Position numbers and translations under genes: made by a program
Notes under the pieces: generated by a model
What the model was told of the DNA's origin: nothing
Databases searched by the model: none
What the model saw: only the letters and a program-made list of their open reading frames with translations
Assembly: GCF_017983445.1 (NCBI RefSeq)
Contig: NZ_JAGOBJ010000009.1
Coordinates: 62,001-126,000, forward strand
Reading direction: 5' to 3'
Source of the DNA: Halomonas sp.
Lineage (GTDB): Bacteria; Pseudomonadota; Gammaproteobacteria; Pseudomonadales; Halomonadaceae
Length of the DNA stretch: 64,000 bases
Shown: in pieces, positions 2,977 to 57,200 of the stretch
How the letters are laid out: the number at the start of each line of letters is the position of its first letter
Position numbering within the stretch: position 1 is the stretch's first letter

Positions 2977-3067
2977 GGAGGGATGGCAGAGCGGTTTAAT
3001 GCACCGGTCTTGAAAACCGGCGTAGGTGAATAACCTACCCAGGGTTCGAATCCCTGTCCCTCCGCCA
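2977..3067 (+). tRNA. tRNA-Ser (anticodon TGA)
   Basis: The acceptor arms GGAGGGA (2977-2983) and TCCCTCC (3057-3063) pair fully, followed by discriminator G and an encoded CCA. The anticodon stem CCGGT/ACCGG encloses CTTGAAA with anticodon TGA. A long variable arm (GTAGGTGAATAACCTAC) marks a class II serine tRNA. The T arm GGTTCGAATCC is canonical. Confidence 0.97.
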
Positions 3068-3078
3068 CTTCGATACTA

Positions 3079-3107
3079 AAACCCCTGATTCATCAGGGGT
3101 TTTTTCG
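3079..3107 (+). terminator. Rho-independent terminator of tRNA-Ser
   Basis: The hairpin AACCCCTGA-ttca-TCAGGGGTT is followed by TTTTTC, directly after the tRNA. Confidence 0.85.
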
Positions 3108-3588
3108 TTTCTAGGCCCTGCGCTTCCTTCCCGATACCTCCTCTATAGAATGCACCGGTCTTTTATCGTGCCCAGAATGTGTCTGAGAATGCTCGATCAG
3201 CTTCTGGCGCATTGATAAGCGCCAGGAAATAGCTACTTGATTAATAGGGGCATGCATAGAGTCACTCCTTGCCCCCATTTTTACTATTCACTATCAAGCA
3301 TCAAGAGCAGCCTTGTATGCAAGCGCTGGCTTAGCATGGCATATGAATAGATCACTTTTATTAATTAAGCAGCCTGGAAAGCTGTATAACGCCACTGAGT
3401 GTTTCAATACCCGCCATCTTTAACTAGGTTTTCTAAAAGCTCTATTTTTAGCTAAGAGCTCAGCTTCTTCATGGAGCCGCGCATCGTTTTTGAGCGCTTG
3501 TTTCTATATTTCTTCAAAAATAGTCGCAGTGATCAATAGAATTTATTTACCAAAATTCAAGCAGTACTAGGTAGTGAGGAGCCAAGAA
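3108..3588. other. Intergenic region with a 14-nt tRNA duplicate; no gene seen
   Basis: About 480 bp without a convincing coding frame. AATGCACCGGTCTT at 3149-3162 repeats exactly the anticodon-arm segment 2998-3011 of the tRNA just upstream. A second terminator-like hairpin GGGGCA...TGCCCC followed by CATTTTT lies at 3247-3282. The last 150 bp are AT-rich and probably hold the promoter of the polyketide operon. Confidence 0.5.
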
Positions 3589-4635
3589 ATGAATCCGACC
3601 TATATCAATAGCATTGCCTGTGCTGTCCCGGACTTTGATATACATAGCAAGTTTATCGATTACGCCCCGCGGCTTTTGTCGGATACGCGTTCAGTCAAAG
3701 TGTTCCAGCGGATGGCTGAGCGCTCACAGATAGAGCATAGGTATTCGTTTCTTCAACCTCATGCAGATGACGATAAACTGGATGCAGCAGGTTTCTATCA
3801 AAACGAGGCTTTTCCCAATACTCAAGCGCGCATGAAATTCTACGAACGCTTTGCTTTTACGCTGGCAAAGCGGGCCTTGGATCAGCTTGATCTAACCGGC
3901 ACAACCCATTTGATTACGACAACTTGCACTGGTTTCTATGCACCAGGGCTGGATTATCAGTTGATCAAGTATTACGCATTGCCTGCCAGTATCGAACGCA
4001 CCACCGTTGGCTTTATGGGCTGTTACGCTGCGATCAACGCGCTCAAACTGGCTCGGCATATTGTTCGTTCAGAGCCGCAGGCCAAGGTGCTGTTGCTCAA
4101 TCTTGAACTCTGCACGTTGCATCTCAAGTCTGCGGGAACGCTTGAAGAGGTTTTATCATTCGCAATTTTTTCGGACGGCTGCGCGGCAAGTATCGTATCG
4201 GCGAAGCCTGTTGGTATTGAAATTCAAGCTTTCAACTCGGATGTGCTGCCGGAAACCGAAGCGTTGATTACATGGCATATCGGAAATCAGGGCTTCGATA
4301 TGCACTTGTCAGGCAAAGTGCCGGGAGCCATTGCTAAAAATCTACCGCTTGTAATGGATACGCTGCTGGACGGTGCTACGCATAGTGATATTGCGCTCTG
4401 GGCCATTCACCCCGGTGGCCGCACGGTGCTGGATGCAGTACGGACGGGGGCAGGGCTTGAAGAGCAAGAGCTTACCGAGTCGCGAGAGGTACTTAGGAAG
4501 TTCGGCAATATGTCCTCAGCCACCATTATGTTCGTGCTTCAGGATATGTTGCATCATCCAAGAAAATTAGGCCCCGGCTTGGCAATGGCGTTTGGCCCTG
4601 GGCTAACGGTTGAAAGCATGCGGTTCATTCTTTAG
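3589..4635 (+). CDS. Type III polyketide synthase (chalcone/stilbene synthase-like)
   Basis: A 348-residue homodimeric ketosynthase that would extend an acyl-CoA starter with malonyl-CoA and cyclise the product. The Cys-His-Asn catalytic triad is visible: C145 in FMGCYAAIN, H274 in WAIHPGGR and N307 in FGNMSSA. Length is normal for the family. The ATG at 3589 is preferred over a GTG 15 bp upstream because a GAGGAG ribosome site lies 7 bp before it. It leads a compact operon with a methyltransferase and an FAD oxidoreductase, the same kinds of partner as srsABC for phenolic lipids in Streptomyces griseus. The real starter and product are unknown. Confidence 0.9.
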   Translation: MNPTYINSIACAVPDFDIHSKFIDYAPRLLSDTRSVKVFQRMAERSQIEHRYSFLQPHADDDKLDAAGFYQNEAFPNTQARMKFYERFAFTLAKRALDQLDLTGTTHLITTTCTGFYAPGLDYQLIKYYALPASIERTTVGFMGCYAAINALKLARHIVRSEPQAKVLLLNLELCTLHLKSAGTLEEVLSFAIFSDGCAASIVSAKPVGIEIQAFNSDVLPETEALITWHIGNQGFDMHLSGKVPGAIAKNLPLVMDTLLDGATHSDIALWAIHPGGRTVLDAVRTGAGLEEQELTESREVLRKFGNMSSATIMFVLQDMLHHPRKLGPGLAMAFGPGLTVESMRFIL

Positions 4636-4649
4636 GGATAAAGAGAGCT

Positions 4650-5369
4650 ATGCCAGATTTTAGTCAACGCAGTGATGAGAAGGAACTCATGGATGCAGAA
4701 GGTATCTCGTTCGAAGAATTTCACGATTGCCTTAAAGGTCTTGAGCGTATCAATTATCTCACGCTGGCTTATCGTCCCACTCTGCAATGGCTTCGTCCTT
4801 GGGTAGAAAACCATAAACGTCTTTTCGTGTTAGATGTGGCCAGTGGTGGTGGGGATATGTTGCGCCAAATTGCCAAGCAATGGCCTGCTCATTTTACGCC
4901 GAATTCCGGTTATCGTATGGTTGGAGTCGATCTGAACCCATGGTCAAAAAAGTCTGCTGAATTATGGCCTCAACCTTCTGCCACAAGCTATGTAACTGGG
5001 AATGTGTTTGCCTTCGAGCCCAGTCAGCCCATCGATATAGTTATATCGTCGCTATTTACCCATCATCTTACCGATAGTCAGATAGTGGATTTTCTGCGCT
5101 GGATGGATAGCCACGCGAGCAAGGGCTGGTTTATTAACGACCTTCATCGGCATTCCATTCCCTATTATTTTATCAAGGCGGCCACGGCACTCTTCAGCCG
5201 CAATCGACTTATTCGTAATGACGCCGCTGTGTCGGTGGCACGCGCTTTGACAGTAGCGGATTGGCAGCGTCTGATCGATAAAGCAGACCTTGAAGAAAAG
5301 GTGCGAGTTCAGTGGTTTTTCCCTTTTCGCTTGTGCGTCTCCTGTAACAAGGAAGTATCAATCCAGTGA
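4650..5369 (+). CDS. SAM-dependent methyltransferase of the type III PKS cluster
   Basis: A 239-residue class I methyltransferase. The glycine-rich SAM-binding motif VLDVASGGGD lies near residue 60, an acidic GVDLNPWS motif II follows, and IDIVISSLFTHHL matches motif III. It begins 15 bp after the synthase stop and its end overlaps the next start (GTGA), so the three genes should be co-transcribed and coupled. It most likely methylates carbon or oxygen of the aromatic polyketide. That role rests on context; the fold assignment rests on motifs. Confidence 0.85.
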   Translation: MPDFSQRSDEKELMDAEGISFEEFHDCLKGLERINYLTLAYRPTLQWLRPWVENHKRLFVLDVASGGGDMLRQIAKQWPAHFTPNSGYRMVGVDLNPWSKKSAELWPQPSATSYVTGNVFAFEPSQPIDIVISSLFTHHLTDSQIVDFLRWMDSHASKGWFINDLHRHSIPYYFIKAATALFSRNRLIRNDAAVSVARALTVADWQRLIDKADLEEKVRVQWFFPFRLCVSCNKEVSIQ

Positions 5370-6529
5370 GCGATGAAACGGTAATCATAGGTGGCGGGCC
5401 AGCGGGGGCGGCAGCGGCGATCGAATTAGCCAGGCAAGGCATGCCGGTGCGGCTTTTGGAGCGAAAGCCCGGTCCGCATCACAAAGTTTGCGGTGAATTT
5501 ATCAGCTATGAGGCCGCCCAACATTTAGAGGCGCTGGGGTTGAGTTTAGCGACGTTAGGGGCTGAGCCTATTCATCACGTGCGGTTCTATAACGGCGAGA
5601 GCGAGCTTGCTTTTGACCTGCCGTTCACTGCCTGGAGCCTGTCCCGGCGCCTGCTGGATTCGGCTTTGTTAGAGAAGGCTGAACATGCGGGTACAAACGT
5701 TGCGCTAGGGACGGCGGTTAGGCAGCTATCTCGCACTGATGATGGCTGGAGATTGGTTACCAGTAGCAAGTCGAGTATAAGGCCAGCCAGCATGGAGTTT
5801 TCAGCGAAGACAGTGTTTCTAGCCACGGGAAAGCATGAAGTGCGCCACTGGAAGCGTAACGTAAAAGCGTCTCATCGCCATAATTTGATTGGTCTTAAGA
5901 TGCACTTTAGTCCTGACGCCTTGCATCAGGATCAATGGCGGAACACCGTTGAAATTCATTTATTCAATGACGGTTACGCCGGCCTGGAACCGATAGAAAA
6001 GGGTAGGGTCAATCTCTGTTTTTTAATCAGCCAAGATGTATATAAAGCATGTGGTGGTAGCTGGGCTGTGGTACTCGACTGGCTTAGCCGTACTTCATCC
6101 CATATGAAGCAGCGCCTTGCCACGTTAACGCCCTGCTGGTGTGAACCCTTGGCCGTCTCTGGGATTCCTTATGGGTATATCCATTCACCCGATGACTCGG
6201 TACCCAATTTGTTCTCATTGGGAGATCAGGCTGCGATAATTCCATCGTTTGCAGGTGATGGAATTGCCATTGCCTTATATACCGCTTCACTCGCTGCCCA
6301 CGTTCATGCCTCTGGTGGCGATTCCAGAACGTATCAACGACTGGCCTCTAACGATTTAACCCAACCGGTGCGGTATGCCAAGCGGCTAGCCAGCGTGCTA
6401 TCTAGTCGCTTGGGGCGTAAGGCAGTCTTTGCTTATGCACGGCTATGGCCGGGGCTAACACGTGAAATGATACATCGGACGCGGGTGGGCCAATTTAATC
6501 GTATGCAACAAGAACCTCAGACAAAGTAG
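5366..6529 (+). CDS. FAD-dependent oxidoreductase, geranylgeranyl-reductase/UbiH-like
   Basis: A 387-residue flavoprotein. The N-terminal dinucleotide-binding motif GGGPAGAAAA leads into LLERKPGPHHKVCGEF, typical of the geranylgeranyl reductase/PHBH-like superfamily. The second FAD motif is SLGDQAAIIPSFAGDGIAIAL near residue 290, where D binds the ribityl chain. It uses a GTG start overlapping the methyltransferase stop by 4 bp. It probably oxidises or reduces the polyketide product, as the flavoprotein hydroxylase does in srs-type clusters, but family members also reduce isoprenoids. A terminator follows. Confidence 0.85.
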   Translation: MSDETVIIGGGPAGAAAAIELARQGMPVRLLERKPGPHHKVCGEFISYEAAQHLEALGLSLATLGAEPIHHVRFYNGESELAFDLPFTAWSLSRRLLDSALLEKAEHAGTNVALGTAVRQLSRTDDGWRLVTSSKSSIRPASMEFSAKTVFLATGKHEVRHWKRNVKASHRHNLIGLKMHFSPDALHQDQWRNTVEIHLFNDGYAGLEPIEKGRVNLCFLISQDVYKACGGSWAVVLDWLSRTSSHMKQRLATLTPCWCEPLAVSGIPYGYIHSPDDSVPNLFSLGDQAAIIPSFAGDGIAIALYTASLAAHVHASGGDSRTYQRLASNDLTQPVRYAKRLASVLSSRLGRKAVFAYARLWPGLTREMIHRTRVGQFNRMQQEPQTK

Positions 6530-46124: not shown

Positions 46125-46961
46125 TTACTCTTCGATATCGTCTTGATCAACCGCTTCGTCTTCAGCGGCTTGTTCAGCGGGTTCGCCACCAGGAAATTCC
46201 GGGCGCTCATGAATATAGTTTTGCGCCACATCAATGATCGCAATATCCATCAGGAACCGACGACCCAGCAGTACCGGATAGTCCAAATGGGTACGATCGT
46301 TAAGGGTAAACTGAACGTTTTCGCGGATGGGGCCAAGCGTCATCAATAACGAAATCACCGGGCGTGATGCTTCGCCAGAAGCTTGCACTATACGGACGCG
46401 CCGCTCGACGGGTGCTTCAATCCACTCATCACGCAATGATTCCACAACAACGTCATCGTCATTGAGGGCCAGTTTGAAACGTACCCAATCTTCACCGTCA
46501 CGTTCGAAACGGGTAATCTCGGAAGCTGACAAGGATGAAGTGTTGGCACCCGAATCGACGCGGGCTTTTAAATAAGTACCGATACTGGGTAAACCGATCC
46601 ACTCATTACGGCCCAGCGTGGCCTTGGTTTCAAGAGCCTCGTCAATATTACATTCTTCACGAATAACGATCGGCTCTTCGCCGCGGGCTTCAAGCTCTTG
46701 TATATCACTGCGTAAGAGACGCACAAGGCTGCCAACCTCACGAACATCGGCTGTCAGGGTCTTTTGTTGGCTGAGCTGTTGGTCTTGATGCTGGGCGCTA
46801 GCATCGCATTGCTGCGTTAGTGTGTCTTGCAGTTCGAGTATTCGCGAATTAAACGACGCTTCGCTCAATGGCGGTGGATCATTTGACTCTGGCGGCTGTA
46901 GGGCACAGCCTGAGAACAAAAGTGATAAACCAGCCATCAGCCACAAAACACCTGGGCGCAT
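46125..46961 (-). CDS. Retropepsin-like aspartic protease lipoprotein (PF05618 'ATP-dependent zinc protease' family)
   Basis: A 278-residue exported protein. A lipobox (LLFSGC) ends the signal peptide at about residue 20, and a coiled coil follows (40-85). The catalytic domain (about 115-245) has RVDSGANTSSLSA, the D-S-G motif of retropepsins, and DYPVLLGRRFL, the usual second motif. The tail is acidic. It leads the operon. The ATG at 46961 has AAGGA about 11 bp upstream; an ATG at 46973 is possible. Confidence 0.85.
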   Translation of the reverse strand: MRPGVLWLMAGLSLLFSGCALQPPESNDPPPLSEASFNSRILELQDTLTQQCDASAQHQDQQLSQQKTLTADVREVGSLVRLLRSDIQELEARGEEPIVIREECNIDEALETKATLGRNEWIGLPSIGTYLKARVDSGANTSSLSASEITRFERDGEDWVRFKLALNDDDVVVESLRDEWIEAPVERRVRIVQASGEASRPVISLLMTLGPIRENVQFTLNDRTHLDYPVLLGRRFLMDIAIIDVAQNYIHERPEFPGGEPAEQAAEDEAVDQDDIEE

Positions 46962-47112
46962 AACGAGTGACATCCTTGAAAAGTAAAAAGGAATGATAAG
47001 GAGAAGCTAGACCGGTTGTCCAACGTAGCACTGATATTTCGTAGCTCACGATTATCCGATTTAACATAATATATATTATGCGAACCCTTGTAGGGTCATT
47101 GTGAAGCGCATA

Positions 47113-47172
47113 GCACCGGCAGCCTTGTACTTCCACACAAAGTGCTTAATTTCCACATAAACCACTTAAGAT
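47113..47172 (+). repeat. Tandem ~20-bp repeats, left array
   Basis: CCACACAAAGTGCTTAATT (47133-47151) and CCACATAAACCACTTAAGAT (47153-47172) are 20 bp apart; a degenerate copy ending GTACTT precedes them at 47113. The same repeat occurs at 55213-55273 in the same orientation and at 56415-56545 inverted. Confidence 0.65.
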
Positions 47173-47529
47173 TGCGTATGTCCATCTAACATTCTGATTT
47201 TTAGATAATAATGGTTTAGCGTGCACATTCTTACATAACCAGATTCTAATTGCCTCTACTGAACAGATTCCGCCTGCATTGACATTACGAATTCTTGTCC
47301 TCGACGAGGGGCCGGCGAAACTTTTTTATGCATAGATTTGTACATCTAGTGACTCCTTGTTTTTCTGCAGCTCAGACTCATGCTGACCGCGAACATTCTT
47401 GGTGCTTGCCCGAACCCCGTTTTCCATACTGTACAGGGTCTCATTGTTCCAGCCTTACACCTCCGAAAAGGTGAAGTCATGCTAACGAGTCACATAAGTG
47501 ACGGTGTTCTTATTCTTGAAAATATTCAT
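47131..47529 (+). repeat. Direct repeat copy A flanking the helicase cassette
   Basis: Aligns with 55231-55556 over nearly its whole length, for example TTAGCGTGCACATTCTTACA at 47216 and 55318, CAGCTCAGACTCATGCTGAC, and CTAACGAGTCAC. Copy A has about 75 bp (47266-47345) that B lacks. Several differences in the frame from 47380 fall at third codon positions, so it may be a coding fossil. Confidence 0.8.
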
Positions 47530-48311
47530 GACTATTACGGCGGGCCAGTGTTCGACGTTAGGTGTGTTGCTCATCTCAACCTAATGATCACTGCAATGTT
47601 GCCTGTGCATACTTGGAAGGGTTCACGTTAATCTGGGCATATTACATGCACCGCTGAGCCTGACCATCACCTCTTTGCCGGATTGCGGTTAGAGCTGAAG
47701 ACAACTGTTTAAAATCATCAGATGTTGAAACAGATCTTTTCACAGATGACAGGAAAGGATCGTACCTGTCTTGAATGTGCACCGTATAAGAAGGCCTATA
47801 ATGCCTACTACCCACTGATACTAAATACATTGGGACAGCCTGTTGCAAAGCTTTTTCAAACCACATGCAAAAAATCCGTTAAAATAACATTAATTTTCCT
47901 CGTCTTAATTCCAATCAATCGCCCCCAAGTACCCTAGAAATCTCTCTTGGCAACTAAATGGCTGCGCTCCTTGGCCTGTCCGACGGTTTCGATCTTGGGG
48001 CCTAGTATATCGTTTGCGGCCCATAGGGCCCTCAGTGTAAGGCTTGGTGTGTCTACGAACCAAAGGCGATTCACGACTGGATAGCCAGCTACTCAAGTGG
48101 TTGGCTGATCACAATTTTTGGCAGTCGAATTATATCCTTGAGCGATACCCTTCAGTGACCAAAGACCAGTTCTGATAGGCCTATTTGCGCGCCCACGAAT
48201 GTAATTTTTTGATACCATGCTGACAGTCTATGTACTACAACAATACGCAGGCAATAGGATAAAACTGGAATCGCATGCAAGGATTAAATTATTTTATAAG
48301 GAACTGATTTC

Positions 48312-51300
48312 ATGAAAATAATTAACCATGGGAACGGAATACATCAACGAGAAGTCCCTGGTATTAAATATCTAGGGAGTCACTTGCCCCTTAAGTGGAT
48401 AGGTCATACAAATTTAGACCTATCGCTTCCTCAGGGGCCTCGCGAAATTGATTTGGTACTCTTCTCCACAGATAGAATCTTCCTCATTGACCTGAAGGAT
48501 GGTCATGGCCGTTATGAGAGCTTTGAGGGTGCCTGGTCTCTGAACGGCGTGCCTCAGAACGGTCTCTCCCCAGTCAAGAAGATACTCGACAATGCCAGGC
48601 AGGTGCGAATCCAGTTAGATAGGTTTCTTGAAGATCGTGCACGTCAAACCGGTCACACAAGGATGCCCACTCCTAAAGTCGAGGGAGTAGTGATCCTGAC
48701 TAGCAGCTCTGATCTTAGCGGGATTGCACCAACCGAGAAACTCTCGGTATTTACTTCTAAGTCTTTTGTTGAGATCGTCAGTGATACGAAACGTCGCCTT
48801 GGGCGATTCCAGGCCGTAGGGCCCGACTTTGTAACCAATCCGATTTACTCATCCCATTGGCACAGCCACTTGAACCTATTTCTAAACGCAAGAAGTGGAG
48901 TTTTTCGCCCAGGGACACGCATCTATGGCGGCTATGTTGCTTCCGGAAATGGTGCCGCAACGTTCGTCGGTCCATCGAAGATCTATCAGGAATTTACGGT
49001 TCATGATAACACAGCTGCTCAGTCGACCGGCCTCCTTCGCAAATGGGACTTTTCTTTGGCCGAAACGAAATTCCAGACGCAGGACGGCAGACTAGAGGTT
49101 GCCGGCCGTGAAAGGGGAATTATTGGTTGGCTAAATGATCGGAGCGAGCTCTGCGCAAATGCGGTTCTTCAGCCCAAGGCCGAGGACGACGAACGCTCGG
49201 TCGACTATTGGGAGGTCTATGATCAGCGCAGACGGATGAAACGTTTTTCGGAGTTCGTGCAGAGTGAGCTACCTCGCCTTCGACCTGATGAGCGAATTGA
49301 AATTGCACGACAGATCATTTACCAGGTGAGCTGCTTGCACACGTACCATGCCGCTCACCTGAATCTGGGTGTACACAGTATTTGGATAGCGCTTCCGTCC
49401 GAGGTAAAACTTTCACATTTGATGTGTGCCCGCTACCCGCAGGCCATGTCACTTGGCAACACACGATATCAGTTCCTATCCAGCGTCCAGTCTCCAGAAG
49501 ATGAATTGGGAGAAGTGGTTAGCGGAGAGCAGCGCGATGTATATCACCTCGGGTGCTTAGTTCATCTAGTTCTCTTTGGTGTCTTGCCTGCAGACAACCC
49601 GCCCGACTGGGACCCTGGGATTGATACCACTGGCACTTTTCATAACCTCCATCACGTCCTAGAACATGCTATCTCATGGGATTGTTCCGACCGCTACAAG
49701 GACGCTAATCAGCTTCTCCATGCGTTCAACGCGTCTGTAGAGCCGGTGGAGGTTGGTGCAGAGGTACTGAAAAGGCTGGAGTCGTTCAAAACTATCCCCT
49801 CACAAATGAAGCTCTTCAAACAATATCCGGAACATAAAGAGCTTAAAGACACCGACTTTATGACCATGTGGACGTCAGAGACCGATGACGGGCTTGTTCT
49901 CGTAAAGCTGTGGAAGCGCGCCGCATGGAGCGAGGGGACAACCGACTTACCACGCATTCTTGATTTTTTGGAACGTGCGCATCATTACAGCATCACTCAC
50001 CCACCGGGTTGCGTCCCGATCAAGGCTGCCTATTGGCTAAATGATGCCTTTGCGTTGGTTCAGCCCTATGTCGATGCACCGACTCTTGCTAATCACCCTC
50101 TACTGGTTGACAAGGGGGCCGTGACGCCGGATCAAGCCTTACTCTTCTCACTTGAACTCGTCCGGACGGTAATCACACTCCACGATGCCGGGCTAGGCCA
50201 CGGGGATCTCAAGCCAGAGAACATTCTCACCTGCGGCGATCTGCCAGAACCTTACCTGGTAGATTATCTCGACTTCTGTTGCATTAGCGACGGGGAGATC
50301 CAAACGACCGCATACGCGCCAGTTGCCGGGGGCACTCTCGAACGCGATCGCTACGCCGTTACCATGATCGCTCAAGAGATCCTTCATGGCGTTAAACTTG
50401 CCGAGAAAACACAAAAATCTATTGACGAATCGATCACAACGTGTCGAGGCGAAGTCCATGCAAATGCAACTTTGTTGCCCCTCCAGGATGCACTTAGACG
50501 TGCCCTGAACCCATCACCTCAGCATAAGATCCGTCATCTTCACATTAGCCTCCCCAACGCACCTACCGGACAGTTGGTGCCAGATGATGACGGCTTCGGG
50601 TATGGGATCACGGGATCGGAATTGTTTATTCGCGGCACCAGTGATGTCCTGTACTTCCGACTCCAGAAGGGACAGATTAAATTTGCCCGACTCTCCCCGA
50701 CCCCGCAGATAGTTCACCGGCGCCTTCAGGCAAAGCAGAGAGGGATCCTGAATGCCGAGATTTTCGTTCAGGGAGATGCCACGCAGTCTTTGAAAGACTT
50801 CCAAAAGTTATTCGGTGAACCAGAGTTCATTGATCTCGTTGCACCGTCTGGAAAAGCACAAGCCTCCATTGAAGACAGCGCGGAACTTGAAGGCGATGAC
50901 ATTGATCCGGACGAGGAGGCTCATGCCACTACTGCCGAGACTGATGAAGATGCAGTCGCAGAGCTCGTCGAAGCCGCAAGAACCACACAGCGGTCAAGTA
51001 TACCGGAACTCTGGCGCTCTCTCGTTGATGTCGAAGTCAGCCTGACTAACGAAGCCAAAGCAATCGGCCCCAGCACCTTCAGGAAGGACAACGGCACGCA
51101 CGCGGTTCCTATACAGCTTGTTTGCGGAACCTTCGAGTTTGATCGAAGGGATAGAGTAACGGTAGAGCGCCTCGGCAATGACGGACGATGGCGGAGGATT
51201 GGAATCCTCGAACTGGTGAAGTCTAGCGCCGAGTTCATTCATATCGAGGCTACAGCATGGTTCTCATCCGTTGGCAACTTAATAGAGCAGGAAACTCGCT

Positions 51301-53300
51301 TACGCTTCGTCAGCAGAATGGAGTATGCCAACATCACTCGGCGTGACGCTGCGGTTAAACGCATCCTTGCACGCCGCTCAATCGTGCCGAACCTGATCGA
51401 CTACTTCGACCCAGCATGCTCGCCAGAGCTCCAGATAATGCCGATTGAGGTAGACAAAGCACAGATCAAACGTCTCTATGAATTGAATGATACCCAAGCT
51501 GAGGCATTTGCTCAGATTTTCAAGGTACGCCCTCTAGGTTTACTTCAGGGCCCGCCTGGGACCGGCAAAACCAAGTTCATTGGAGCACTTATCCACTATG
51601 CGCTCACTCACGGATACGTGCGTAACGTACTACTCTCCAGTCAGTCGCACGAAGCTGTGAACAATGCTGCCGGAGCTGTTCTCAAACTGTTCCCGAACAC
51701 AGAACAAGCGCCAAGCATCTTGCGTATCGGGCAGGAGGATGATGTTTCGGAGCAACTCCTACCCTACCATGTCCTGCGTGTTGAACAATCATATAAAGCC
51801 AACTTCAATGCCACATTAAAACCCCGACTGATGACTGCTGCAGCTGCAATTGGCATTTCTCCTAACGTGGCTGAAAAACTGATCTGGGTAGAGAGTTCGA
51901 TACGTCCTGTAATGGTGGGCCTAAATAAGCTTGCTGAAGACCCCGATGCAGATGGCGTTCAGGATCGCCTACAGAGCCAGCTCAATACCCTAGCCTCACT
52001 AGTTTCCGACATGGACCTCGACATTGACATACCTATGAGGAATCACTTGCCCGACGAGCACTTCCTCGACACGGTCTTTGACGAGATAGCCCATGAGTCA
52101 GGATGCGCACCTGATAGCATCGCCAAGCTCATCGATGTCTCTCGGCTGACTCGGGACATGGTGAGCAGCGTTTCCACTGCCGAGCGCAGCTTCGAAACGT
52201 TCCTCGCCGGAACCCGGCAGATTGTTGTTGGTACATGCGTTGGACTTGGCCGTTCCTCTCTCGGCCTCACCTCAACCGCCTTTGACCTAGTCGTCATCGA
52301 TGAAGCTGCACGGTGCACCGCGAGTGAGCTTGCAGTCCCCATGCAGGCTGGCCGCTGGTGTGTGCTAGTAGGCGACCAGAACCAACTTGAGCCGAGAGTG
52401 GACGAGACCGTTGTGTCACGGGTTGCAGAAAAGACGGGCTATTCCGCCGAGGACATCGTGGAAAGCGCATTCCAGACTGTGTTCGAATCCGAACTCGGGA
52501 AACAGATCAGTCAGCGTCTGGATACTCAGTATCGCTCCCTCCCACCTATCGGCCGTGTGGTTTCAAGTGCCTTCTACAACAACCGGCTGGAGCCAGGCCG
52601 GCTCACATCGCCGGTACCAGGCTCTGCGTTCCCGCCGGGATTACAGCACCCCCTCATGTGGATTTACACCGATGAGATGGGGGAGGAAGCCTTCCAACGG
52701 CCAGAATTAAAGAAAGCGTCCAAGAGCTTGATCAATCGAGTCGAGGTTGACCTAATCGCTGGTATGCTCCTGAAATGGGACAAATGCCCCAAGTTCATTG
52801 AATGGCTGGAAAATCGGGAAGAACAGGAGCCGGCAATTGGCATCATCTGCTCGTACTCAGCTCAGGCTACTGCGATCCGGCATAAGCTTCGCCTAGCTCG
52901 GCTCAGTGACACAATGCAAGCTTCCGTTAAGGTTGGTACTGTCGACAGCTATCAGGGCAAGGAGAACCGCATTATCCTGTTATCCCTAGTAAGGAACAAC
53001 ATAGAGGGGCAACGGGTAGACGGAAAGCCGACGATTCGACCAGGTTTTATGGCACGTCCTAATAGGATTAACGTAGCAGCAAGTCGAGCCATGGACCGTT
53101 TAGTAATAGTGGGGGCAAAGGATAGGTGGGCACCTGAAGGCCCCATGGCAACGTTGAAAGAAAAATTTGAGCAAGAGGTTACCGGAGGGCAAGGGATTTT
53201 CATCGAGGCCACAGAAATGCTGGTTGAGCAAAGAGAGGCTCTGATGGCTTCTGTCTCTACGCCCAGTCCTAAGAAGGCTGCGAACAAGGAACTTTCATGA
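48312..53300 (+). CDS. NERD-pseudokinase-kinase-SF1 helicase fusion, candidate defence protein
   Basis: A 1662-residue protein. Residues 30-130: NERD nuclease-like domain (E45-x-D47 and I59-D-L-K62). About 225-480: a degenerate kinase fold, HLNLG at 349 instead of HRD. About 505-730: a second kinase with HGDLKPEN at 630-637 and VDYLDF at 650-655 in place of DFG. About 1040-1620: UPF1/DNA2-type helicase with Walker A GPPGTGKT (1080-1087), DEAA (1330-1333), GDQNQLEP (1354) and DSYQGKE (1545). AAGGA precedes the ATG. It overlaps the next gene by 4 bp. BREX PglW (NERD + kinase) and Mokosh type I (kinase + helicase) are the nearest described plans. Defence is inferred. Confidence 0.85.
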   Translation: MKIINHGNGIHQREVPGIKYLGSHLPLKWIGHTNLDLSLPQGPREIDLVLFSTDRIFLIDLKDGHGRYESFEGAWSLNGVPQNGLSPVKKILDNARQVRIQLDRFLEDRARQTGHTRMPTPKVEGVVILTSSSDLSGIAPTEKLSVFTSKSFVEIVSDTKRRLGRFQAVGPDFVTNPIYSSHWHSHLNLFLNARSGVFRPGTRIYGGYVASGNGAATFVGPSKIYQEFTVHDNTAAQSTGLLRKWDFSLAETKFQTQDGRLEVAGRERGIIGWLNDRSELCANAVLQPKAEDDERSVDYWEVYDQRRRMKRFSEFVQSELPRLRPDERIEIARQIIYQVSCLHTYHAAHLNLGVHSIWIALPSEVKLSHLMCARYPQAMSLGNTRYQFLSSVQSPEDELGEVVSGEQRDVYHLGCLVHLVLFGVLPADNPPDWDPGIDTTGTFHNLHHVLEHAISWDCSDRYKDANQLLHAFNASVEPVEVGAEVLKRLESFKTIPSQMKLFKQYPEHKELKDTDFMTMWTSETDDGLVLVKLWKRAAWSEGTTDLPRILDFLERAHHYSITHPPGCVPIKAAYWLNDAFALVQPYVDAPTLANHPLLVDKGAVTPDQALLFSLELVRTVITLHDAGLGHGDLKPENILTCGDLPEPYLVDYLDFCCISDGEIQTTAYAPVAGGTLERDRYAVTMIAQEILHGVKLAEKTQKSIDESITTCRGEVHANATLLPLQDALRRALNPSPQHKIRHLHISLPNAPTGQLVPDDDGFGYGITGSELFIRGTSDVLYFRLQKGQIKFARLSPTPQIVHRRLQAKQRGILNAEIFVQGDATQSLKDFQKLFGEPEFIDLVAPSGKAQASIEDSAELEGDDIDPDEEAHATTAETDEDAVAELVEAARTTQRSSIPELWRSLVDVEVSLTNEAKAIGPSTFRKDNGTHAVPIQLVCGTFEFDRRDRVTVERLGNDGRWRRIGILELVKSSAEFIHIEATAWFSSVGNLIEQETRLRFVSRMEYANITRRDAAVKRILARRSIVPNLIDYFDPACSPELQIMPIEVDKAQIKRLYELNDTQAEAFAQIFKVRPLGLLQGPPGTGKTKFIGALIHYALTHGYVRNVLLSSQSHEAVNNAAGAVLKLFPNTEQAPSILRIGQEDDVSEQLLPYHVLRVEQSYKANFNATLKPRLMTAAAAIGISPNVAEKLIWVESSIRPVMVGLNKLAEDPDADGVQDRLQSQLNTLASLVSDMDLDIDIPMRNHLPDEHFLDTVFDEIAHESGCAPDSIAKLIDVSRLTRDMVSSVSTAERSFETFLAGTRQIVVGTCVGLGRSSLGLTSTAFDLVVIDEAARCTASELAVPMQAGRWCVLVGDQNQLEPRVDETVVSRVAEKTGYSAEDIVESAFQTVFESELGKQISQRLDTQYRSLPPIGRVVSSAFYNNRLEPGRLTSPVPGSAFPPGLQHPLMWIYTDEMGEEAFQRPELKKASKSLINRVEVDLIAGMLLKWDKCPKFIEWLENREEQEPAIGIICSYSAQATAIRHKLRLARLSDTMQASVKVGTVDSYQGKENRIILLSLVRNNIEGQRVDGKPTIRPGFMARPNRINVAASRAMDRLVIVGAKDRWAPEGPMATLKEKFEQEVTGGQGIFIEATEMLVEQREALMASVSTPSPKKAANKELS

Positions 53301-54754
53301 GATCACTCTCGGCAAGTAAGCCCACCTACTCTGCAGAACTGGAAGATGAGGTCACCACAATTGAGATCGGAACCTACGATGTTCTGCTGCCGTGCCGTAG
53401 GTATCGAGTGACTTTCAAAGTCGCTGAGGTCGGGAAGGTCTCACTGACAACTGAATTTCTGCTCCGGCTGATACACGCGGTAGACGGGATGCCAGAGTCA
53501 GAGGTCGCCAAGTTCTTTGGTTTCAACTCACAGGAGATGGCTTTCCTTCTCAATGACGCCGTTAGTCTCGGGTATGTCATCAGGGAGGCAGGTCGGCTCT
53601 GGCTAACCACAGCTGGCCGCCAGCTCTTCGTGCAAGGCGAGGATGCTCCCCAGATTTATGACGTTGAAACCAAAACCGTGATTCAAGGTTTTGACATGCT
53701 CTCATTCAGTCCCGAGGAGAAAACTTGGCTCGAGCATTTCAATTTCGACAGCAGACTACCTGAACTGCCAATTGATGCAACACTTGCCAGTAAAGCACGC
53801 GATCGTATCCCAGCCTCCTTCAAGCGTCATTTTTCCACTCTTATGTACAAGCGTGACTCAAGGTATGCGCCACGGAAGTCACTGTATTCCATTGATAACG
53901 TTACTTCTTCGGATCGCTTCACTTCAATCGTGCCGGTAGTCGTAAAGGCTATCCCTTCACACCCCTCTCTCGGTGAGCCAGACTTGCTTGTCTGGCGCTC
54001 TGAAGAGCAACTTGATCGGCTTTCCCAGATCACGTCTGCTGTGGCCCAGTTTGTCCATGAACTTCGGATGGATAAGCCAGCCGATGCCGCAGAGCATTAC
54101 CAAATACTGGCTGACCTAGCACCTGAGTTCATGAAAGACTACACAAGTGGGTCCGGGGTCGCAGTTGAGCGCTTCTATCGCGATGTCGTAGCTCTGAAAG
54201 GTGGTGGTTTCCGTAGTAATCGTAGGACTGTCCCAATCCTAGGTCCCCTACTCTGCGCTAAGAACCTGAAGCTTCTCTTTGATGGCATCGAGCGCACCGG
54301 CGCGAATAGTCCTGTGCACTGCCTACCGAAGAAGTACTACTGGCGCGCCCCACAAAATCGTCATTGGGGGATGAGTCGCAAGCTGCCTCACATCTGTAGT
54401 CAAATAGCGGAGTATCTGGCTACTAAAGCTGGCGACGATTCACCGTCACCGCGCTCCGTTCTGATCCAAGAGGGCAGATGCTGGGGACTTGATCGAGCCT
54501 TCTCTGAAGTGCAGGATGCCCCACTGGGAAGTATTCCTTCTTCAGTAGAGATAATACTAATACCAGGTTTAGCCGTAGCCGTTCTAGTACATCTTCCCAT
54601 ACTTGCCACTAGCGGGCATGCTGTACCTCTAGGCTTCATCAGCGTAGATTCTCAGGTTGTTGCACGGGCAGTTGCGCTGTTACGAGAATCAGTGCCTATT
54701 GAGGTACCTACTGAATACATAACGGAGGACATGATCGACTTACCTAGTGAGTAG
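53297..54754 (+). CDS. Partner protein with winged-helix region, unknown function
   Basis: A 485-residue protein starting in an ATGA overlap with the helicase gene, so it is translationally coupled. About residues 45-115 look like a winged helix (MPESEVAKFFGFNSQEM then LGYVIREAGRLWLTTAGRQLF). The remainder is a mixed alpha/beta region with no motif I recognise; no HxKxxxxD of phospholipase D nucleases, no Walker motif, no membrane segment. A second component of a defence system is likely from context only. Confidence 0.75.
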   Translation: MRSLSASKPTYSAELEDEVTTIEIGTYDVLLPCRRYRVTFKVAEVGKVSLTTEFLLRLIHAVDGMPESEVAKFFGFNSQEMAFLLNDAVSLGYVIREAGRLWLTTAGRQLFVQGEDAPQIYDVETKTVIQGFDMLSFSPEEKTWLEHFNFDSRLPELPIDATLASKARDRIPASFKRHFSTLMYKRDSRYAPRKSLYSIDNVTSSDRFTSIVPVVVKAIPSHPSLGEPDLLVWRSEEQLDRLSQITSAVAQFVHELRMDKPADAAEHYQILADLAPEFMKDYTSGSGVAVERFYRDVVALKGGGFRSNRRTVPILGPLLCAKNLKLLFDGIERTGANSPVHCLPKKYYWRAPQNRHWGMSRKLPHICSQIAEYLATKAGDDSPSPRSVLIQEGRCWGLDRAFSEVQDAPLGSIPSSVEIILIPGLAVAVLVHLPILATSGHAVPLGFISVDSQVVARAVALLRESVPIEVPTEYITEDMIDLPSE

Positions 54755-55212
54755 CTAGATCAACTCCTCAAACTGCGCAAGCTGCTGGGCGTGCATGCAT
54801 TAAAATGCTTGACTCGCCCGTTTTAATCACATCATGTAATCTATACTGTTTCTGACTACCTTTTCATTGATTGTTAAAGCATCCACTATAGTCGTAGTAT
54901 CAATGCTGTTCGTGTTAACGAATTTTAAAATTCAATAATATAGTGCAGTTTATCGACCATCCATTCGGATCGTTGCGGTTACCATTAACTATATTGACAG
55001 TCACGCGATACATGCCCATGGTCACTTAATTTCCGAGCCACTGTTAATTACGTAGCGATGTGCTGCCTCGGGATATTCCGCAATGTTACGAGTACGTTGT
55101 GATGAATATCTGAGCGCTCCTTGCCAAGGTCTGATCTTTTACTAAAATCCTGCCCCAATGGAACGCAACATGCAGTGCTCCAAAGAGCGAATACCAAGCC
55201 CTCCCCATATAT
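54755..55212. other. Non-coding region after the cassette, with a weak terminator
   Basis: No plausible gene. GGGCG...CGCCC followed by GTTTTAATC at 54787-54826 could end the cassette transcript. A degenerate copy of the ~20-bp repeat (GGTCACTTAATT) lies at about 55014-55032. The rest shows nothing. Confidence 0.45.
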
Positions 55213-55273
55213 CCACACAAGGTACTTAATTCTCAACACAAGGTACTTAATTTCCACATAAAGCATTTAAGAT
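55213..55273 (+). repeat. Tandem ~20-bp repeats, middle array
   Basis: Three head-to-tail copies at 55213 (CCACACAAGGTACTTAATT), 55234 (CAACACAAGGTACTTAATT) and 55254 (CCACATAAAGCATTTAAGAT), 20-21 bp apart, same orientation as the left array. Confidence 0.75.
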
Positions 55274-55556
55274 GGCTTATATCTAACTAACTTTCTGATT
55301 TTTAGATAAAAATGGCTTTAGCGTGCACATTCTTACATAACCTGATGCCGATTGTCCCTACTGAACAGGTACCGAGTGACTACTTGTTTTTTTGCAGCTC
55401 AGACTCATGCTGACCGCGAATATTCTTGGTGCTTTCCCGAATCTCGTTTTTCATACTGTGCAGGGCCTCTTGATCCAGCCTTTCACCTCCGAAACGGTGA
55501 AGTCGTGCTAACGAGTCACTTCAATGGCGGTATTCTTATCTTTGAAAATATTCATC
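55231..55556 (+). repeat. Direct repeat copy B flanking the helicase cassette
   Basis: The diverged second copy of 47131-47529, in direct orientation, ending with GAAAATATTCAT as copy A does. It lacks about 75 bp internally and has a 1-bp deletion in the possible fossil frame. Its right end overlaps the 3' end of the minus-strand gene at 55536. Confidence 0.8.
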
Positions 55557-55851
55557 CCTAGCCAATAGCCCCAAAGGATCATCTTTATTCCAGACCCGGT
55601 TTCCGTAGCCATCTTCGCTGAATAAGTTTTGCACGCGACGCTCTTGTTTGAAGTAAGCCAACGCACTAAAAAAACAGCTTTCGCACAGGTGAATTTCATA
55701 GCGTTCACCGTCGTGTTGAGAGCCATAGCCCCAATGTGCTTCAAGGGTGGCGTACTCAAGATTTTCACCTGCTACATGAGTTGTAGTTAGGCATACATCG
55801 CATATCACATCAGTGATGGCATCGATTTCTACTTTTTTCAGTTACTTTCAT
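55536..55851 (-). pseudogene. CxxC zinc-ribbon-like protein, probably frameshifted near its start
   Basis: The open frame (GTG at 55808) encodes 90 residues with CDVC at the N-terminus and LCESC near residue 38, a zinc-binding pattern. No ribosome site precedes that GTG. An ATG at 55851 begins MKVTEK but runs to a stop; skipping one A in the six-A run (55833-55838) joins it to the 90-residue frame as MKVTEKVEIDAITDVICDVC. The C-terminus lies within direct repeat B, so the original end may be altered. Function unknown. Confidence 0.5.
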
Positions 55852-55998
55852 TGCATTTACCCTGCTATGCGTTACTTACAAATGTTTTCCACATCACAAC
55901 AGCTTTCTGAGACCTAGTAGTATTTTTTATTTACCAAAGCTATCCACGTCAACAGGCCGTTGGGCACGATGAGATACTGACTTCACCCCTTCTCAGTA

Positions 55999-56190
55999 TC
56001 AGCCGGTTTTAGAGTAAGAAGTTACTATGTTGTGTTTTACAGCAAGCTGATCGGTATAGGCAAAAGGTGTCAGCCCACCTAAGCTCTTTTCTCTCTTTCT
56101 TCGTTGTACTCTGGCCGCCATGCCTTAGCCTTAGTGACTACCATAAAATTGAGATGTTCGAGCTGACGCAGAGCCTAAATAGAAAGGCGT
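55999..56190 (-). pseudogene. Remnant of IS3-family transposase OrfB (C-terminus)
   Basis: On the minus strand, AWRPEYNEERE followed, after a frameshift, by SLGGLTPFAYTDQLAV is the well-known end of IS3-group transposases (typical form WRPEYNEERPKRSLGGLTP). Upstream sequence decays quickly and no catalytic DDE part or terminal repeat remains. Confidence 0.75.
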
Positions 56191-56714
56191 ATTCCGTCGG
56201 TATAATAATCTGCTTCGATGTCAGCTTCGATGACGTTCCTACTGCGTCACGTTAAGCAAATCTGCCTAATGTGAAGTACTTGATACTAGGCTTTGATTCC
56301 AGATCCGGTTTCTTTCTCGCGGGTATCGCGAAAATTTCAGTAGAAAGCTGCTCAGGGCTTGTATCGCCAAAACAATAAAGGGGCTTGATAAAATCTGCGT
56401 GTGCAAATACGTTGGATTTAGTACTTTACTTGGAAAAATAAATCGATTGTTATTCTGAAATATATTTCGTTTTATTTAGCACTTTGTGTGGAAAAATCTT
56501 CTAAGTAACTGATATTTGGTGAGCCAGATTTAGTATTTTAATTGATCGTCTAACTCACTGGTTTAAGCAAGCATCGTCTCTAATTCAATATAATCAGCAA
56601 GATAATAGATTTTACCAGGTATAACGCTTAAGCGATTTTTACCCATGCTATGAAACACCTACACTCTAGGTCATGGCTTGCTAAGCAACCGCTGGGTCTG
56701 ATTCGTGAACATTA
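56191..56714. other. Intergenic region right of the IS remnant
   Basis: No gene seen. It contains the inverted ~20-bp repeats (56415-56545) and AT-rich sequence up to the ectC terminator. Confidence 0.5.
56415..56545 (-). repeat. Spaced inverted copies of the ~20-bp repeat, right array
   Basis: Three copies read on the minus strand: 56415-56433 (CCAAGTAAAGTACTAAATC), 56473-56491 (CCACACAAAGTGCTAAATA) and 56527-56545 (TCAATTAAAATACTAAATC, weak). They are 54-58 bp apart and opposite in orientation to the left and middle arrays. Confidence 0.6.
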
Positions 56715-56748
56715 AAAAGCAGCCTGCTTGAGCAAGGCTGCTTTTCGT
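56715..56748 (-). terminator. Terminator of ectABC
   Basis: Perfect 11-bp stem AAAAGCAGCCT/AGGCTGCTTTT (56715-56725 and 56735-56745); on the minus strand it ends in TTTTTAATG. Confidence 0.88.
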
Positions 56749-56787
56749 GGACTCATGTCCAAGCGCTAACGGCTCTAACCCTTATGC

Positions 56788-57183
56788 TTATTCATCAGCC
56801 GGTGCGTAGGAGCCGTCTTCGCGGTGTACTTCCTTGCCTGACAGCGCGGGAGTAAATACGCAGGCAACGGTCATGCCTTTTTCTTTACCACGCAGCAGGT
56901 GCTCGTCATGCTGATCAAGCAGATAGATATCACCTGCTTTAATGGGCCAAATCTTGCCATCGGCCAGGGTTTCTACTTCACCTTCGCCTTCATAGCAAAA
57001 CACCGCTTCATAGTGGTGCTTGTACTGAATGTGAGTTTCAGTACCTGGGAAAATACGCGTGACATGAAAAGAAAAACCCGCGTTATCTTCAGCAAGCACT
57101 AGACGCGTGCTGTCCCAGTTGCCGTTTTCAGCAGTTACCAGACGATCTGTTTTGCGTGCTTCTTCAAGATTACGAACAATCAT
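56788..57183 (-). CDS. ectC: L-ectoine synthase
   Basis: A 131-residue cupin that cyclises N-gamma-acetyl-diaminobutyrate to ectoine. The core [21 protein letters not shown] contains the metal and substrate residues, and [12 protein letters not shown] follows. It is nearly identical in plan to H. elongata EctC. ATG 57183 has GGAG 7 bp upstream; the frame start at 57195 is too long. Last gene of ectABC. Confidence 0.97.
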
Positions 57184-57200
57184 AATGTGCTCCATGCCTG

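What the first reader, a model, noticed from the sequence alone, without database searches (positions are those of the whole stretch)
48312..54754. Two-gene candidate anti-phage system: NERD-pseudokinase-kinase-helicase plus an orphan partner
Seen: a 1662-residue protein combines a NERD-like N-terminus, two kinase folds and a complete UPF1/DNA2-type helicase, coupled by an ATGA overlap to a 485-residue protein. Known: NERD plus kinase occurs in BREX PglW, and kinase plus helicase with a PLD nuclease partner in Mokosh type I, as I recall it. Inference: this fusion with a partner that has no PLD motif is a variant or new defence family. Its isolation between repeats supports transfer.
Basis: partly seen in the sequence, partly recalled or inferred. 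Interest (0 to 1): 0.85.

Follow-up and report, generated by a model that had tools for sequence, protein, structure and literature searches.

The report
Mokosh phage defence with swapped nuclease
This is a two-gene bacterial anti-phage system of the known Mokosh kind, but of a branch in which the usual PLD nuclease looks dead and a different nuclease domain, plus an intact kinase, seems to have taken its place.

Summary
The genes at 48312-53300 and 53297-54754 match PADLOC's MkoA (1530 bits) and MkoB (364 bits) almost end to end: Mokosh type I, so neither an orphan partner nor a new family. PADLOC files two kinds of pair under these names. Short MkoA (no NERD in 12 of 12; no HRD Asp in its kinase-like part in 12 of 12) pairs with MkoB bearing HxKx4D in 12 of 12. 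Long MkoA, the window's kind, has NERD in 21 of 21, complete NERD catalytic residues in 69 of 69 and a second, intact kinase in 68 of 69; its MkoB has HxKx4D in 0 of 23 (1 of 69 in a larger set), although a confident model of the window's MkoB weakly resembles winged-helix and PLD-fold proteins. In 80 of 80 long-MkoA loci that MkoB is next door. Two near relatives lack 47126-56552, so the pair was gained by insertion. Best reading: helicase-driven defence in which NERD replaces a dead PLD, gated by a pseudokinase-kinase tandem. Identity near certain; mechanism inferred. NERD in Mokosh type I is in print; the exchange I did not find in print.

The parts
48312..53300 (+). mkoA (long branch): NERD - pseudokinase - kinase - SF1 helicase, 1662 aa
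   Evidence: ORF; PDLC03921, 1530 bits, 1-1636; Pfam
48312..48740 (+). NERD (PD-(D/E)XK-like) domain, aa 1-143, with E14, D47, D60-x-K62
   Evidence: Pfam PF08378 aa 19-129; E14, D47, K62 kept and position 60 D or E in 69 of 69
48900..49751 (+). pseudokinase, about aa 197-480 (K to R243, N to S356, DFG-D to S368)
   Evidence: limits read off the model, approximate
49824..50516 (+). second kinase, about aa 505-735, K532, D632, N637, D651 intact
   Evidence: Pfam Pkinase aa 567-640; limits approximate
51480..53120 (+). UPF1/DNA2-type SF1 helicase, aa 1057-1603
   Evidence: Pfam AAA_11 + AAA_12; K1086, D1330, E1331 in 69 of 69
53297..54754 (+). mkoB (PLD-motif-less branch), 485 aa, ATGA overlap with mkoA
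   Evidence: PDLC03923 363.7 bits, 20-466
53360..53611 (+). N-terminal strand plus winged helix-turn-helix of MkoB, aa 22-105
   Evidence: AlphaFold2, MarR/TrmB Foldseek matches, profile match to the N-terminus of PLD-type MkoB
54227..54685 (+). MkoB C-terminal domain with PLD-like fold but no HKD motif, aa 311-463
   Evidence: AlphaFold2, block means of pLDDT 91 or more; weak Foldseek matches NucT, F13, FAM83; HxKx4D absent
47126..56552 (.). inserted segment, 9427 bp, absent from two near relatives at the same junction
47132..47534 (+). left copy of the imperfect direct repeat
55212..55560 (+). right copy of the imperfect direct repeat
47131..47150 (+). 20-nt inverted repeat, left arm, 5 bp inside the left junction
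56474..56493 (-). 20-nt inverted repeat, right arm, 59 bp inside the right junction

Best explanation
The pair is a Mokosh type I anti-phage operon (mkoA-mkoB) of a branch whose catalytic parts have been exchanged. In the PLD branch MkoB is a winged-helix protein with an HKD-bearing PLD nuclease domain, and MkoA carries one kinase-like part without the HRD Asp. In this branch MkoB keeps the winged helix and, probably, a PLD-like fold without active site, while MkoA has an N-terminal NERD nuclease domain and a second, intact kinase. Proposed mechanism: MkoB (wHTH + pseudo-PLD) binds nucleic acid and/or docks on MkoA as recogniser and regulator; the UPF1-like helicase translocates on a phage RNA or DNA intermediate; the pseudokinase-kinase tandem relays this state, by phosphorylation of MkoA, MkoB or a third protein, and releases the NERD nuclease to cut phage (or cellular) nucleic acid. 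Shown here: family identity, domain order, catalytic-residue state, co-occurrence, the exchange pattern in the sample, the insertion. Inferred: phage defence by this copy, NERD as nuclease effector, kinase gating, the role of MkoB, and the direction of the exchange.
For: PADLOC MkoA/MkoB matches almost end to end. In 390 genomes of the order, the 9 with MkoA-long at E 1e-100 are the same 9 that hold a near-full-length MkoB of this kind; in 80 of 80 genome loci found by the helicase alone MkoB is the next gene, gap -4 bp in 31 of 80. NERD Pfam match in 21 of 21 long MkoA; none in 12 of 12 short ones (and no frame of their loci matches my NERD profile). PLDc_2 in 11 of 12 short-type and 0 of 23 long-type MkoB; HxKx4D 12 of 12 against 0 of 23 and 1 of 69 (1.9 of 69 expected in shuffles). 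NERD E14, D47, D/E60, K62 in 69 of 69, as a working PD-(D/E)XK site needs (motif recalled). Kinase 2 K532/D632/D651 in 68 of 69; kinase 1 lacks three catalytic residues in 69 of 69; the kinase-like part of short MkoA lacks the HRD Asp in 12 of 12. MkoB model pLDDT 93.4 with NucT, vaccinia F13, TrmB and, lower, FAM83 among its weak PDB matches. Helicase tree: long clade 100/100, long + short together 86/90. Best Foldseek match of MkoA 1-790 is a JAK with pseudokinase and kinase, 1.3e-12. Insertion with empty junctions; relatives on conjugative plasmids and inside a BREX-1 operon. PMC11291487 (passage) says that Mokosh degrades foreign viral transcripts.
Against: No phage test exists here for this copy. 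NERD nuclease activity is not shown; NERD could bind rather than cut. PLD-fold matches of MkoB never reach E 0.001 in PDB or BFVD, with TM 0.17-0.21 by query length, and profile comparison of the C-terminal parts of the two MkoB kinds finds nothing (probability at most 2.7%). The short sample is small (12 pairs, 8 of them plasmid loci found by likeness to one of the others), and Pfam recognises its kinase in only 8 of 12 at E 0.01. Of the 12 long loci with split or cut MkoA, 7 show NERD in some frame and 5 do not (4 near a contig end, L137 not). Long + short as sister groups has only 86/90 support, with one viral long branch among the short and 5 of 13 short rows lost. The JAK match is over a model with pTM 0.54 and has rmsd 28.5, so it shows two kinase folds in tandem, not a JAK-like arrangement.
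Confidence: 0.6

Rival explanations
1. Ordinary Mokosh type I with nothing exchanged: both MkoB kinds act alike and the NERD is only a nucleic-acid-binding or structural domain; cutting is done by another protein or the system only unwinds and blocks.
For: PADLOC uses one name for both kinds; the N-terminal parts of the two MkoB kinds are related by profile; many NERD proteins have no shown nuclease activity (recalled).
Against: The PD-(D/E)XK residues of NERD are kept in 69 of 69 while identity of this region to the window falls to 19-33% in the main group; NERD and HKD motifs exclude each other in the pairs examined.
Confidence: 0.2
2. The intact kinase is the effector: on infection kinase 2 phosphorylates host proteins and shuts down the cell; NERD and helicase are the sensor.
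For: Kinase 2 is intact in 68 of 69 and was not found in the PLD branch; PADLOC models of the kinase defence PD-T4-6 give weak matches to it (42.6 bits at best).
Against: NERD residues are at least as conserved (69 of 69); what the two branches share in kind is a nuclease domain plus helicase.
Confidence: 0.15
3. A housekeeping RNA-decay or DNA-repair pair that happens to resemble Mokosh.
For: Helicase is UPF1/IGHMBP2-like (TIGR00376 125 bits, below its cut-off of 349).
Against: Patchy: MkoB matches in 4 of 250 genomes of the family including its own; inserted at a junction that is empty in the two nearest relatives; plasmid-borne relatives.
Confidence: 0.03

Closest known systems
Mokosh type I, PADLOC profiles PDLC03921 (MkoA, 1607) and PDLC03923 (MkoB, 454)
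   Same: Both window proteins match almost end to end (1530 and 364 bits); gene order, strand and closeness as in relatives.
   Different: The window's sub-branch (with Pseudomonas and mostly Alphaproteobacteria) is 24-28% identical to the main group and has HLD, HLN or HCD for HRD in its pseudokinase (36, 1 and 1 of 38).
Mokosh type I with PLD nuclease, PADLOC PDLC03920 (MkoA, 1112) and PDLC03922 (MkoB, 610)
   Same: SF1 helicase, a degenerate kinase-like part, winged-helix N-terminus of MkoB, operon order, genes overlapping in 7 of 8 plasmid pairs.
   Different: No NERD, no second kinase found, HxKx4D in MkoB.
Mokosh type II (MkoC)
   Same: Related helicase (PDLC03924 93 bits over parts of the window helicase).
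   Different: One gene, helicase and PLD fused, no kinase mentioned (as described in PMC11672841 and PMC10740426, passages).
BREX PglW / MADS MAD6
   Same: NERD-kinase part: NF047741 MAD6 75.5 bits over 2-627, NF033442 PglW 53.8 bits, best stretch 44-432.
   Different: Far below their cut-offs (460, 990); the match stops before the helicase; no further genes in the insert.
FAM83 pseudo-PLD proteins (vertebrates)
   Same: Weak fold similarity of MkoB (FAM83 entry at E 0.06); a PLD-like domain without working HKD that anchors CK1 kinases (PMC6008594, passages).
   Different: No sequence relation shown; analogy only.

Membership tests
Mokosh type I (PADLOC) | MkoA profile match over the whole protein | tested here: met
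   PDLC03921, 1530 bits, 1-1636 of 1662 aa, 1-1603 of 1607 positions
Mokosh type I (PADLOC) | MkoB profile match over the whole protein | tested here: met
   PDLC03923, 363.7 bits, 20-466 of 485 aa
Mokosh type I (PADLOC) | mkoA and mkoB adjacent, same strand | tested here: met
   ATGA overlap at 53297; 80 of 80 relatives adjacent
Mokosh type I (as described in PMC11672841) | COG1112-like helicase with a Ser/Thr kinase domain | tested here: met
   AAA_11, AAA_12, Pkinase above cut-offs; COG1112 itself was not searched
Mokosh type I (as described in PMC11672841) | PLD family nuclease encoded by the separate second gene | tested here: not met
   No PLD Pfam match and no HxKx4D in 23 of 23 long-type MkoB, window included; only a weak PLD-like fold. 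Hence filed as a PLD-dead variant, not as a typical member
Mokosh type I | NERD domain (listed for the type in PMC10952713) | tested here: met
   PF08378 28.9 bits against cut-off 22.1; passage
Mokosh type I | protects against phage | not testable with these tools
   needs plating assays
BREX (PglW) | PglW equivalog score and accompanying pglX, pglZ, brxC, brxL | tested here: not met
   53.8 bits against 990; no ORF of 100 aa or more on either strand lies in the insert outside the two genes
MADS (MAD6) | MAD6 equivalog score | tested here: not met
   75.5 bits against 460

The most novel reading that the evidence does not exclude
Within one named defence system the catalytic duties have moved between the two proteins: MkoB's PLD nuclease stands against a pseudo-PLD adaptor, while MkoA carries a NERD nuclease and a live kinase next to a pseudokinase, giving a bacterial pseudokinase-kinase relay that gates a nuclease-helicase during phage infection.
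Probability: 0.45. Interest if true: 0.7.

Novelty: new variant of a known kind. Interest (0 to 1): 0.48.

Why it matters
One label, Mokosh type I, covers two machines that very probably cut nucleic acid with different enzymes. The comparison says which residues to test (NERD K62, kinase D632, MkoB's missing HKD), turns the open question of what the effector of Mokosh is into a simple swap experiment, and offers a bacterial case of a pseudokinase-kinase tandem and of a pseudo-PLD partner of a kinase, both best known from eukaryotes (recalled).

Tried and rejected
New family: rejected. BREX or MADS membership: rejected by cut-offs. Housekeeping gene: rejected by patchiness and empty junctions. 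Phage-borne: no match of MkoB at E 1e-5 in 50,697 phage records; viral contigs gave 26 loci matching only the helicase region, 23-33% identical. Sequence proof that the MkoB C-terminus descends from PLD: failed (a forced global alignment of whole proteins scored 91.5% but rests on the N-terminus), so only fold similarity is claimed. Solved relatives by sequence: none for NERD, two MarR regulators at E 0.1 for MkoB. Repeats as a multi-copy IS in this genome: rejected, the only copies found are the two flanking the pair; 6 of 60 other genomes of the genus hold a partial copy. Promoter and terminator scans: about chance or below. DefenseFinder sub-type names: one paper says 'Mokosh Type I-A' (passage), so sub-types exist in some catalogue, but I could not learn which one this is (listing). 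The founding Mokosh paper is not held; what I say of it is second-hand. Print searches for the NERD/PLD exchange: (listings), nothing found; most subscription journals and bioRxiv preprints are outside that library.

Rows dropped: A2 left out the split or truncated MkoA of L042, L043, L069; A4 left out the split MkoB of L043; A1 left out L065 (contig edge, partner missing). A6 used 68 of the 78 MkoB of at least 400 aa from the 80 loci, A7 58 of the 68 MkoA of at least 1590 aa (near-duplicates and some others left out); one search used those 68 and the window, the other 12 of 80 loci having a split, broken or cut MkoA. A8 used 24 rows. The tree lost 5 of 13 short, 1 of 16 long, 8 of 9 other and 2 of 14 viral rows to a motif and length filter.
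Full report
What is there. Two ORFs, 48312-53300 (1662 aa) and 53297-54754 (485 aa), lie head to tail with an ATGA overlap; no ORF of 100 aa or more on either strand lies in the insert outside them. Pfam places NERD at 19-129, a kinase at 567-640 and AAA_11/AAA_12 at 1057-1603 of the first protein, each above its curated cut-off; the second has no Pfam match.

Identity. PADLOC names the first MkoA (PDLC03921, 1530 bits over 1-1636) and the second MkoB (PDLC03923, 364 bits over 20-466). The pair is therefore Mokosh type I by profile. PglW and MAD6, other NERD-kinase proteins of defence systems, match only the N-terminal part and far below their cut-offs. In 390 genomes of the order, 15 have some match to PDLC03923, 9 of them near full length; the nine genomes with MkoA-long at E 1e-100 are the same nine. 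A scan of the species-genome collection with a conserved helicase stretch gave 206 related loci, of which the best 80 were kept; in 80 of 80 the next gene is MkoB of this kind, in two cut short by a contig end. The nearest are Pseudomonas loci, the helicase stretch 64-79% identical and MkoB 47-66%.

Two machines under one name. PDLC03922, PADLOC's other MkoB profile, matches the window MkoB only at its N-terminus (3-110 of 610), while its positions from about 258 on ring on generic PLD proteins: 239 of 390 genomes gave a match, in the listed rows mostly there. I collected 12 pairs with short MkoA (2 from the order search, 2 from a phylum search, 8 plasmid loci found by likeness to one of these) and 21 to 23 with long MkoA. 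Short MkoA: no NERD in 12 of 12; this rests on complete lists for two, the first 600 aa of nine and the whole of L066, where the best 25 of 31 families were shown, on the tally, and on the absence of any match of my NERD profile in all frames of these loci. The HRD Asp of their kinase-like part is absent in 12 of 12; Pfam recognises that part as kinase in 8 of 12 at E 0.01. Their MkoB: PLDc_2 in 11 of 12, HxKx4D in 12 of 12. Long MkoA: NERD in 21 of 21. Their MkoB: no PLD family in 23 of 23, HxKx4D in 0 of 23, and in 1 of 69 of a larger set against 1.9 of 69 in shuffled sequences. So in this sample NERD and an HKD-bearing PLD exclude each other. In 12 of the 80 genome loci mkoA is split, broken or cut: 7 of these show NERD in some frame; L117, L145, L183 and L185, near contig ends, and L137, not near one, do not.

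Residues. In 69 intact long MkoA (window plus 68) the NERD residues E14, D47 and K62 are invariant and position 60 is D or E (39 and 30); this is the E...D...(D/E)xK set of PD-(D/E)XK nucleases (motif recalled). By my placing of the motifs, the first kinase fold has R for the beta3 Lys, S for the catalytic-loop Asn and S for the DFG Asp in 69 of 69, so it is a pseudokinase in the whole branch; the window alone also lost the HRD Asp (N351). The second kinase keeps K532, D632, N637 and D651 in 68 of 69 each, and the helicase keeps K1086, D1330 and E1331 in 69 of 69.

Structure. AlphaFold2 models the window MkoB at mean pLDDT 93.4, pTM 0.84, from 69 sequences: a strand with winged helix, a middle part, and an alpha/beta domain at 311-463. 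Foldseek against the PDB gives, in its first ten, TrmB and TrmBL2, the nuclease NucT (TM 0.45-0.52 by target length, rmsd 6.5-7.8) and vaccinia F13, then MarR regulators and, lower, a human FAM83 domain and BJ-TSA-9; that NucT and F13 have the PLD fold and that BJ-TSA-9 is a FAM83 protein is recalled. The best E-value is 2.8e-3 and none passes 1e-3. BFVD agrees weakly: its first match is a DNA-binding protein, the second a poxvirus envelope lipase, and a NucT-like nuclease comes at rank 49. The N-termini of the two MkoB kinds are related by profile (E about 1e-5, probability 83%); the C-termini are not shown to be. I conclude, with reserve, a wHTH plus a PLD-like fold without active site; E418 is invariant and H432 at least 90% kept in 69 rows, so the domain still has a constrained site. 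MkoA 1-790 is modelled at pLDDT 89 but pTM 0.54; the best PDB match is a JAK, 815 columns, E 1.3e-12 but rmsd 28.5, followed by single kinases, so only two kinase folds in tandem are shown.

Phylogeny. On a helicase tree of 36 rows the long MkoA form one clade (100/100) and join the short ones at 86/90, with a long-branched viral row among the short. This fits a common origin of the two branches but does not show which state is older.

How it came here. Of 61 genus genomes (own included), 57 have both neighbours on one contig. The distance between ectC (56788-57195, ectoine synthase) and the Zn_protease-family gene (46125-46973) is 229-1007 bp in 48 and 3.3-64 kb in 9, the window (9.8 kb) among these. 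G202, 98% identical in the neighbouring protein, lacks 47126-56552 and has 7 bp in its place; G156, equally close, has the same junction with the same 7 bp, but its neighbours lie on two contigs and it carries other DNA just to the left. The insert has direct repeats about 8 kb apart and a 20-nt inverted pair near both ends, and no recombinase ORF of 100 aa or more. G170 holds a 79% copy of part of the repeat at the same site with other genes. For 7 of the 8 other long intervals I read the ORFs by eye, without family searches, as mainly metabolic, transport or regulatory; so this is a variable site, not shown to be a defence hotspot. MkoB matches occur in 4 of 250 genomes of the family including this one.

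Setting elsewhere. NERD-branch relatives lie on conjugative plasmids and, in one plasmid, between pglX and pglZ of a BREX-1 operon. PLD-branch pairs lie near Hachiman and near SIR2 and SAVED genes. Of the plasmid loci that I opened, others have no obvious defence neighbours (for example). No match in phage records.

How it most likely works. Shown: parts, residue states, co-occurrence. Inferred: the helicase moves along a phage RNA or DNA intermediate; MkoB recognises or docks; kinase 2, held or relayed by the pseudokinase, changes the state of the complex; NERD cuts. I rate the identity about 0.97, NERD as the nuclease effector about 0.6, kinase gating about 0.5, the pseudo-PLD reading of MkoB about 0.65.

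Against what is known. PMC11672841 (passage) describes type I as helicase plus STK with a separate PLD nuclease; PMC10952713 (table passage) lists both NERD and PLD under Mokosh type I, and the passage does not say that they exclude each other; PMC12735699 (passage) uses the name type I-A. So the branch is in catalogues, and what I add is the exchange. By the printed PLD criterion the window fails; by profile it is a member; I file it as a PLD-dead, NERD-bearing variant.

Verdict. Known kind, real variant, with a testable exchange of active sites that I did not find in print. Interest 0.48.

Noticed in passing
window 46973-56788: The interval between the Zn_protease-family gene and ectC is a variable site in the genus: 229-1007 bp in 48 of 57 genomes with both genes on one contig, 3.3-64 kb in 9 (window included), with different cargo.
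   Followed up: partly
L217:16109-22523 (Polaromonas sp. JS666 plasmid 1): A NERD-branch mkoA-mkoB pair sits between pglX and pglZ of a BREX-1 operon.
   Followed up: no
L030:1-11311, L034:501-11179: Gene rows with a separate kinase-like gene, a related helicase of about 1135 aa and a protein with weak winged-helix matches and no PLD match: possibly a third, split relative of Mokosh.
   Followed up: no
L066:7836-14639: A short-type MkoA at the C-terminal end of an open frame of 2267 aa that also has an AAA_16/AAA_22 match near its start, followed by an aberrant 798-aa MkoB-like protein.
   Followed up: no
L043, L069/L158, L120, L168, L171, L179, L189: Long mkoA is split into two or more frames in several relatives; sequencing error, decay or real splitting not told apart.
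   Followed up: no
PADLOC profile PDLC03922: This MkoB profile matches in 239 of 390 genomes at E 0.001, in the listed rows mostly over its PLD part, so it can over-call MkoB when used alone.
   Followed up: partly
window 47132-47272: A copy of part of the left repeat, 79% identical, lies at the same chromosomal site in another species with different genes beside it (L197:1354-1494); mobile-element origin not identified.
   Followed up: partly
window 2977-6529: A tRNA-Ser gene is followed by a type III polyketide synthase-like gene, a methyltransferase and an FAD-binding oxidoreductase-like gene.
   Followed up: no
window MkoB E418 and H432 (about 54548-54592): E418 is invariant and H432 at least 90% kept in 69 MkoB of the PLD-dead branch, in neighbouring strands of the PLD-like domain: a possible replacement site.
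   Followed up: no
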